This document shows, piece by piece, positions 3,094 through 58,146 of a stretch of 64,000 nt of DNA. This stretch comes from Parasporobacterium sp. GTDB taxonomy: Bacteria > Bacillota > Clostridia > Lachnospirales > Lachnospiraceae. The stretch's first letter is position 1. The number at the start of each line of letters is the position of its first letter. The notes under the pieces were generated by a model. It saw only the letters and a program-made list of their open reading frames with translations, was not told the origin of the DNA and searched no databases. The stretch spans positions 62,001 to 126,000 of the forward strand of contig JAFUBX010000021.1 in assembly GCA_017459985.1 (NCBI GenBank), read 5' to 3'. The position numbers and the translations under genes are program-made.

Positions 3094-3437
3094 TCATGTG
3101 TTTTTCGAGATTTTTATTATCTGCATGACCTTCCCTCCCGGATGTCATGCAATTTACCGCAATGCTGCAATTTTTCGTCAGCCGCTGTCAAAAATCTCAC
3201 GCAATGCTGCAATTTTTCGTCAACGGGCCCTGTTGATGGTGATTTCTGCCGAAAAACTCACGCATTGCTGCATTTTTTTGTCAAAAACAGGGTCCGCAGG
3301 AGTTGTCTGCCGAAAATCTCACGCATTGCTGCAATTTTTCGTCAAGCCCTGTCAGAAACTGCGAGCATTGCGGTGCCAGACCTCGATATTCCATTGGAAT
3401 GTCTTGCGTTTTTCGAAATTTCCATTTTTCGCATGAC
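3094..3437. repeat. Four-hairpin dispersed element, copy 1
   Basis: Non-coding element related over roughly 300 bp to the copy at 17855-18169. It contains four 23-bp units of the form CGCAWTGCTGCAATTTTTCG(TCA) starting at 3158, 3200, 3261 and 3322, a spacing of 42, 61 and 61 bp that is identical in the second copy. Upstream of several units lies TGCCGAAAA, which pairs imperfectly with TTTTTCGTCA to make a hairpin. The element is bracketed by a ~35-bp imperfect direct repeat (3094-3129 and 3401-3437) containing GTTTTTCGARATTT and ending in GCATGAC. From 3431 to about 3506 follow further short repeats built on ATGACT. Because 61 is not a multiple of three, the open frames crossing it are not a conserved protein. 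Confidence 0.85.
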
Positions 3438-17854: not shown

Positions 17855-18169
17855 CCGCCCGGATGTCATGTAATTTACCGCAATGCTGCAATTTTTCGTC
17901 AGTCCTTGTCGAAAATCGCACGCATTGCTGCAATTTTTCGTCAAGGAGGCTCTCAGAGGGCAATTTCTGCCAAATATCTCACACAATGCTGCATTTTTTC
18001 GTCAAAAGCCGGGGCTTCAGAGGTGGTCTGCCGAAAATCGCACGCATTGCTGCATTTTTTCGGCAAGCACTGTCAGAAACTGCAAGCATTGCGGGAATCC
18101 TCCCATCCTTGACATCGATATCCCGCCCGGATGTCATGCGTTTTTCGGAGTTTCCATTTTCCGCATGAC
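17855..18169. repeat. Four-hairpin dispersed element, copy 2
   Basis: Homologue of the element at 3094-3437, in the same orientation. The four 23-bp units start at 17879, 17921, 17982 and 18043, again 42, 61 and 61 bp apart. The shared left part reads GATGTCATGYAATTTACCGC and the shared right part CTGTCAGAAACTGC, followed by GCGTTTTTCGRARTTTCCATT and GCATGAC. Differences between copies are point substitutions and very few indels. It fills much of the 504-bp gap upstream of the esterase; 18170-18330 shows nothing else definite. Confidence 0.85.
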
Positions 18170-57323: not shown

Positions 57324-57406
57324 TTCAGCTATAATTCATCCCATGAAGCCAAGGAGTCGCCCGCGCACCGCGTCCGCAAGCTCCTCGCGCACCGCGCACG
57401 GAAATG
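57324..57406. repeat. 83-bp repeat, copy 1
   Basis: From TTCAGCTATAATTCATCCCA to CACCGCGCACGGAAATG, about 90 percent identical to 57876-57958. It contains the GC-rich CGCGCACCGCGTCCGCAAGC and an inner near-repeat CACCGCG. A shortened copy is at 50390. Function unknown; the copies flank the methyltransferase remnant. Confidence 0.75.
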
Positions 57407-57427
57407 AACAGAAAACCAGCTCTCTGA

Positions 57428-57875: not shown

Positions 57876-57958
57876 TTCAGCTATAATCCTTCCCATGAAA
57901 CCAAGGTGTTGCGCGCGCACCGCGTCCGCAAGCTCCTCTCACACCGCGCACGGAAATG
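57876..57958. repeat. 83-bp repeat, copy 2
   Basis: Same unit as 57324-57406 in the same orientation, 552 bp further on. Immediately after it a frame reads ALSKELYGLMFSRGYPEGFC, a likely piece of a small helical protein, but no complete gene is present. The gap 57959-58146 holds nothing else definite. Confidence 0.75.
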
Positions 57959-58146
57959 GACTGCTTTAAGTAAGGAACTATACGGCCTGATGTTCTCCCG
58001 AGGATATCCGGAAGGGTTTTGTGACGCTGTGACATGGAGACCACCCAGGTGAAATGGAACCTGATCCTGTCGGAAGGGTTCAGGGAGGACGAATCAGAAG
58101 ATTAAAAAATATATTTCGGATTCTTAGGATGCAATAAATCCGGAAT

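What the first reader, a model, noticed from the sequence alone, without database searches (positions are those of the whole stretch)
3094..3437. Dispersed element with four hairpins at a fixed 42-61-61 bp spacing, present twice
Seen directly: the units CGCAWTGCTGCAATTTTTCG start at 3158, 3200, 3261, 3322 here and at 17879, 17921, 17982, 18043 in the second copy, an identical spacing. Each copy has a conserved left end (GATGTCATGYAATTTACCG), a conserved right end (CTGTCAGAAACTGC) and GTTTTTCGARATTT near the border; the 61-bp period is not a codon multiple. Conserved spacing with drifting sequence between units suggests a folded RNA, a protein-binding array or a non-autonomous mobile element. 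I know no named family.
Basis: seen in the sequence. Interest (0 to 1): 0.72.

Follow-up and report, generated by a model that had tools for sequence, protein, structure and literature searches.

The report
Modular spaced palindrome repeats between genes
A gut bacterium carries about forty copies of a 219-base non-coding DNA element scattered among unrelated genes, mostly with five short palindromes at the same mirror-symmetric spacing, and the pattern of change suggests a DNA-binding array kept by selection rather than an RNA or decaying junk.

Summary
The window copies are 219-bp elements (3156-3374, 17877-18095) with five GCAWTGC dyads, not four, at a mirror-symmetric 42-61-61-42 spacing; the last unit is inverted. 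The "border" motifs belong to a second 37-bp palindrome family.

The window's genome has 40 listed sites; 30 keep the exact geometry. Others have 0, 1, 2 or 5 internal units, and a second architecture (42-40-31-41-42) recurs. The family was not found in 13 same-genus genomes (one weak hit without units), 298 other genomes of the family, phages, plasmids, or, by exact pattern, the 84,980-species and viral collections.

"Folded RNA" is not supported: paired changes do not exceed shuffles, and copies lie in every gene orientation. No target-site duplication or linked transposase was found.

Unit sequence is nearly frozen (JC distance 0.09) while spacers have diverged (0.62); truncated fragments carry about four times more core changes than intact copies. 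I read it as a new modular dispersed repeat, BOX/BIME-like in organisation, whose intact copies are kept by selection on double-stranded protein-binding dyads at rigid spacing. The protein and the mode of spread are unknown.

The parts
3156..3374 (+). Copy 1 of the 219-bp element: half-unit, 5-nt linker, unit, 24-nt spacer, unit, 24-nt spacer, unit, 5-nt linker, inverted half-unit
   Evidence: aligned with 28 other 219-bp copies
3156..3180 (+). Left half-unit ACCGCAATGCTGCAATTTTTCGTCA; first dyad centred at 3162
3186..3222 (+). Internal 37-bp unit 1, dyad centre 3204
3247..3283 (+). Internal 37-bp unit 2, dyad centre 3265 = symmetry centre of the whole element
3308..3344 (+). Internal 37-bp unit 3, dyad centre 3326
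3350..3374 (-).
17877..18095 (+). Copy 2 of the 219-bp element, same layout; third dyad degenerate (ACAATGC) but in register
3094..3129 (.). Degenerate palindrome of the second family left of copy 1 (TCATGTG...GCATGAC); not part of the element
   Evidence: family
3401..3437 (.). Degenerate palindrome of the second family right of copy 1 (GTCTTGCG...CGCATGAC); not part of the element
   Evidence: family
18133..18169 (.). Intact 37-bp palindrome of the second family right of copy 2; not part of the element

Best explanation
It is a species-restricted (as far as searched), modular, dispersed non-coding DNA repeat, organised like pneumococcal BOX elements or bacterial interspersed mosaic elements (BIMEs). 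It is built from a 37-bp near-palindromic unit: two facing TGNCRAAAA boxes around a GCAWTGC centre, closed at both ends by inverted half-units. Shown: the layout, the copy number, the fixed geometry, and the frozen units against diverged spacers. Inferred: a dimeric DNA-binding protein recognises each dyad on double-stranded DNA; the five dyads at 42-61-61-42 let it assemble one symmetric nucleoprotein complex per element. The modules spread in the past as a non-autonomous element, and intact copies are now kept by selection for that complex. Whether the complex serves chromosome organisation, local gene control or the element's own movement is not known.
For: 40 sites listed; 30 keep the 42-61-61-42 registers exactly (3 of these with one degenerate dyad) and 5 more are off by 1-2 bp at one spacing. 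Over 28 non-duplicate 219-bp copies the mean JC distance is 0.089 in the 161 unit columns and 0.62 in the 58 spacer/linker columns; 108 invariant columns against 7.4 expected. 13 truncated fragments deviate at 6.3% of strict unit columns against 1.45% for held-out intact copies, in 200 of 200 splits, copy-level median p 0.001. The centres of the three internal dyads are A or T in all 84 cases, split 35/49, as expected of a dyad read from either strand. No covariation above shuffles. 36 copies examined: 34 clear of or barely touching predicted genes, 2 overlapped by a weakly scored frame, in all gene orientations. Nearest genes are diverse: no transposase family in 30 scanned. Modular variants with 0, 1, 2 or 5 internal units and a second fixed architecture.
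Against: No binding protein was identified and no binding was measured. 61 bp is 5.8 helical turns, so the dyads are not all on one face of the helix. Each unit is only pseudo-palindromic (CTCAC on one side, TGCAG on the other). No empty site or target-site duplication proves past movement. The fragment/intact contrast rests on 13 fragments chosen by hand, two of them (L083a, L092) with no deviation. The spacers could be hypermutable instead of neutral. The covariation tests have few doubly varying pairs in the unit hairpins (2), so they cannot exclude that invariant positions pair.
Confidence: 0.52

Rival explanations
1. A purely parasitic miniature mobile element (MITE or REPIN-like). Its units are conserved because only copies with intact units can be copied by a transposase acting in trans; single copies have no function where they sit.
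For: Dispersed copies with sharp borders and 11-bp terminal inverted repeats; fusion with and truncation by other repeats; found in one species only in everything searched; one copy (L035) has a perfect 25-bp terminal inverted repeat.
Against: No target-site duplication in 35 copies. The two Y1 transposases found are IS605-type TnpA genes beside a TnpB-like gene, without the element around them by eye. Copies are not young: the nearest relative in the spacers is at most 86% identical, median about 71%, yet unit columns are almost unchanged, which recent copying without in-place selection does not explain. Other transposase families were not searched for, and distant pairs of these ends (a longer element) were not searched systematically.
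Confidence: 0.27
2. A structured RNA or a single-stranded DNA hairpin array, transcribed and folded.
For: Copy 1 folds better than dinucleotide shuffles as DNA (z -3.1) and copy 2 as RNA (z -4.3), as any long imperfect palindrome would. The covariation score of the cloverleaf-like pairing is a little above shuffles (0.026 against 0.024, reached by 40 of 500).
Against: Paired cells equal the shuffled expectation in unit hairpins, inter-unit hairpins, the whole dyad, both spacers and the linkers. Unit hairpins have 0, 0 and 1 pairs with both-sided change. Contexts of 36 copies: 15 and 8 same-strand, 7 convergent, 6 divergent. No Rfam match at the window copies at gathering threshold.
Confidence: 0.08
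3. Fixed chromosomal sites for a nucleoid or segregation protein that never were mobile.
For: Fixed geometry, selection on units, scattered over many contigs, no evident gene class preference.
Against: Not found in the other 13 genomes of the genus, whereas known segregation sites are widely shared (general knowledge); fragments, fusions and modular copy-number variants point to duplication and spread.
Confidence: 0.1

Closest known systems
BOX elements of Streptococcus pneumoniae (boxA-boxB(n)-boxC)
   Same: End modules around a variable number of internal modules; terminal inverted repeats; clustered with and inserted into other small repeats (passages of PMC3049150)
   Different: Other host; here one 37-bp near-palindromic unit makes up interior and, as halves, both ends; one copy number (three internal units) and one spacing dominate; no target-site duplication is seen. 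Sequences were not compared
REP/BIME mosaics with RAYT transposases
   Same: Imperfect palindromes in regularly spaced mosaics between genes, species-specific, binding sites for several proteins in known cases (abstract and passages of PMC2817692)
   Different: No GTAG tag, no RAYT recognised; internal units share one orientation instead of alternating; no excess of complementary changes
CGTC-tagged REPs
   Same: Short palindromic repeats that lack a dedicated transposase (passages of PMC3733652)
   Different: CGTC occurs inside the right arm in only part of the units (K = T or G), not as an end tag; the passage lists CGTC repeats in five phyla, Firmicutes not among them
MITEs
   Same: Terminal inverted repeats, short, non-coding, dispersed
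   Different: No target-site duplication and no cognate insertion sequence found; units too conserved relative to spacers for decaying insertions

Membership tests
BOX element | end modules flanking a variable number of internal modules | tested here: met
   0, 1, 2, 3 and 5 internal units: L098, L097, L033/L038, the 219-bp class, L036
BOX element | sequence of boxA/boxB/boxC | not tested
   no BOX sequence was fetched for comparison
BOX element | target-site duplication | tested here: not met
   35 copies scanned, word lengths 2-11; the 15 best excesses are words of 2-3 bases, best 7 of 35 against 2.9 expected
REP/BIME | RAYT (Y1 transposase) gene with cognate repeats | tested here: not met
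   two PF01797 genes, both followed by a TnpB-like frame; element sequence not seen in 3,300 bases read around each; genome 94.75% complete
REP/BIME | GTAG or CGTC tag at the foot of the palindrome | tested here: not met
   borders are TTT|ACCGCAATGCT and AGCATTGCGGT|A; CGTC only as a variant inside the right arm
REP/BIME | palindromic units in mosaics with regular spacing | tested here: met
MITE | terminal inverted repeats | tested here: met
   ACCGCAATGCT/AGCATTGCGGT; columns 2-10 pair with 210-218 in 29 of 29 copies
MITE | target-site duplication and empty sites | tested here: not met
   no duplication; no empty site seen: no syntenic relative, and one flank repeat searched occurs only with the element, 4 of 4
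Structured RNA family | covariation of paired positions or an Rfam match | tested here: not met
   few informative pairs in the unit hairpins
CRISPR | near-identical repeats with unique, longer spacers | tested here: not met
   second family only: 37-bp repeats but similar 15-bp linkers

The most novel reading that the evidence does not exclude
A new class of chromosome-architecture element: some forty fixed five-dyad docking sites for an unknown protein that builds an identical symmetric complex at each, formed from a once-mobile modular repeat and domesticated within one species.
Probability: 0.2. Interest if true: 0.78.

Novelty: new variant of a known kind. Interest (0 to 1): 0.52.

Why it matters
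Small dispersed repeats are usually explained as parasites or as hairpins. Here one genome offers about forty natural replicates in which unit sequence and spacing are held while the spacers drift, and broken copies decay faster. That makes the question "parasite or functional site?" testable from strain data alone, and it names a precise duplex probe with which to find the binding protein.

Tried and rejected
RNA or hairpin covariation: no excess in seven pairing schemes or in the count tool (where the covariation score was reached by 40 of 500 shuffles). An earlier scan of many overlapping offsets in the spacers gave a best z of 4.2 in spacer 1 and 1.9 in spacer 2; I did not accept the first because it is the best of hundreds of overlapping tests and the symmetric spacer pairing showed nothing.

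Target-site duplications: none. Complementary flanks: individual copies look convincing (L033, L040, L041) but the set is not above shuffled pairs, p 0.15-0.30.

Empty sites: of 80 loci of relatives found by a window protein (up to 89% amino-acid identity), one (L134) matched window DNA outside the query gene, and none showed the copies' surroundings. The 128-position sequence model gave one weak hit in a sister genome (E 0.0017), which by eye is an AT-rich coding stretch without units. The search used stricter filters that lose weak matches. Second-family matches in two viral contigs (the same sequence twice) and in G006 are single and differ inside; I take them as chance.

A-tract phasing was considered by hand and does not fit 10.5 bp. 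Known segregation sites were compared only from memory: no resemblance.

Rows dropped: a key collision lost two of 40 sites (C127:5695 and C127:22924), seen again but not in the alignments, contexts or rate tests. The tests use 28 of 29 aligned 219-bp copies; L062 was left out as a near-identical copy on another contig. L065 (contig end) and L036 were skipped. Copies of other lengths and the composite forms are not in the rate tests. The fragments were picked by hand; L095-L098, L102, L212, L213 and L215, among others, were not used. The column choice was circular, so repeats it with held-out copies.

Full report
Observation. Scanning for GCAWTGC shows a fifth dyad, in inverted context, 42 bp after the fourth, so that the spacing is 42-61-61-42 and the element is symmetric about the centre of its middle unit. 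The element proper is 219 bp (3156-3374 and 17877-18095). It is bordered by ACCGCAATGCT and AGCATTGCGGT, usually preceded by TTT and followed by A.

Copy number. BLAST in the window's genome (3.53 Mb, 131 contigs, 94.75% complete, 4.98% contamination) gives 71 matching pieces, which I reduced to 40 sites. Of these, 30 have the exact registers (three with one degenerate dyad), five differ by 1-2 bp at one spacing, and the other five are a 198-bp copy, two 158-bp copies with two internal units, one with five internal units and one cut by a contig end. Two sites are probably second readings of the same place: L058 and L062 differ at one base in 219, and L065 repeats the window copy. Further forms are a 55-bp minimal one, half-unit plus inverted half-unit (L098), and a 97-bp one with a single internal unit (L097). 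Seven loci, of which L085 and L090 look like the same place on two contigs, have another architecture; six of the seven read 41/42-40-31-41-42 and L093 differs. The unit pattern with up to three mismatches has 206 matches, reversed control 0 (only the first part is listed).

Distribution. BLAST: 0 of 60 relatives, 13 of them of the genus. Sequence model: 1 of 13 other genomes of the genus, a weak hit that by eye is coding and has no units; 0 of 298 other genomes of the family, with stricter filters. Exact unit pattern: 0 in the 84,980-species collection and 0 in viral contigs, with the proviso that near records may be left out. Phage and plasmid collections: no match. The host is related to Clostridia metagenome assemblies, many from ruminant guts by their titles; a family with nearly 300 genera suggests Lachnospiraceae, which is my inference.

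Not RNA, as far as tested. In 29 aligned copies the three unit hairpins have 0, 0 and 1 pairs with a change on both sides, the outer stem five; the total of 6 pairs and 15 cells compares with 5.8 and 11.8 in shuffles. Counting doubly varying pairs in 28 copies against shuffles gives 31 paired cells of 56 (31.0 expected) for the unit hairpins, 61 of 140 (61.1) across the 5-nt linkers, 10 of 28 (10.0) across the spacers, 430 of 952 (433.4) for the whole dyad, and no excess in the spacers or linkers. The unit hairpins offer only two such pairs, so the power there is low. Copy 1 as DNA and copy 2 as RNA fold better than shuffles, which imperfect palindromes must. Contexts of 36 copies: 15 and 8 between same-strand genes, 7 convergent, 6 divergent; two overlap a weakly predicted frame and one (L039) touches a predicted gene end by a few bases (a home-made gene finder).

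Selection. Between 28 copies the mean JC distance is 0.089 in 161 unit columns and 0.62 in 58 spacer and linker columns. 108 columns are invariant against 7.4 expected under uniform change. About four fifths of the variation in the units sits in 22 columns, largely two-letter choices. The centres of the three internal dyads are A or T in all 84 cases. The closest pair in the spacers, L047/L053, is 86% identical, all others at most 78%. If copies were recent insertions, sources close to them should exist; if they were old and unselected, their units should have drifted like the spacers. Truncated fragments, most of them fused to another repeat, do drift more: 6.3% of strict unit columns against 1.45% in held-out intact copies (first, circular count 34 of 555 against 38 of 3,752). 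The 13 fragments were chosen by hand. I conclude that intact copies are selected where they are, unless spacers are hypermutable.

What is selected. A/T-only dyad centres, independent variation of the two arms and rigid spacing fit double-stranded recognition by a dimeric protein at several registered sites better than base pairing. The protein is unknown. Spacing of 61 bp does not put all dyads on one helical face.

Origin. Dispersal over unrelated places, terminal inverted repeats, copy-number variants, fusions with other repeat families and absence from relatives suggest past spread. Against an active transposon: no target-site duplication, no transposase family among the 30 nearest genes scanned of 35 drawn up (three of the 30 had no match at all), only two unrelated IS605-type genes by PF01797 (no other transposase family was sought), and no empty site.

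Literature. The BOX, BIME, CGTC-REP and HuH-endonuclease papers were seen as passages, others only as listings. Of two searches aimed at such repeats in Lachnospiraceae or Clostridia, one listed 12 of 300 papers, none on bacteria by title, and one found no paper. That is all I can say about earlier description.

Noticed in passing
G000, e.g. L074-L082; in the window 18133-18169, degenerate at 3094-3129 and 3401-3437: Second palindrome family GTCATGCG-N21-CGCATGAC, 37 bp, 43 forward and 47 reverse pattern matches in the genome, in tandem arrays of mostly 52-bp period with similar 15-bp linkers; no match in 12 of 13 same-genus genomes and one dissimilar match in G006.
   Followed up: partly
L082 about 1750-2040: Variant of the 52-bp array whose ends read TCATGTAAA...TTTACATGA, so both arms have changed together relative to GTCATGCG...CGCATGAC; arm complementarity seems kept through change here.
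   Followed up: no
L092, L096, L100, L091, L209-L214: Other intergenic repeats fused to truncated copies: a CTTCTGCACC...GGGTGGGTG module, a GGACCATCC...CTATCCCTG module, and a GGAAGGT...ACCTTCC palindrome; the genome looks like a mosaic of palindromic modules.
   Followed up: partly
L035:2536-2754: One copy has a perfect 25-bp terminal inverted repeat because its left end carries the right-end sequence, as if one end had been copied from the other.
   Followed up: no
L032, L042, L047, L053: Four copies share flanking sequence (GGTCCGATCAGGYGGAG before the element); the L047 upstream flank matches only at these four places, so they may have duplicated as a larger unit.
   Followed up: partly
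57324-57409 and 57876-57961: Unrelated 86-bp direct repeat, 90% identical, 552 bp apart.
   Followed up: no
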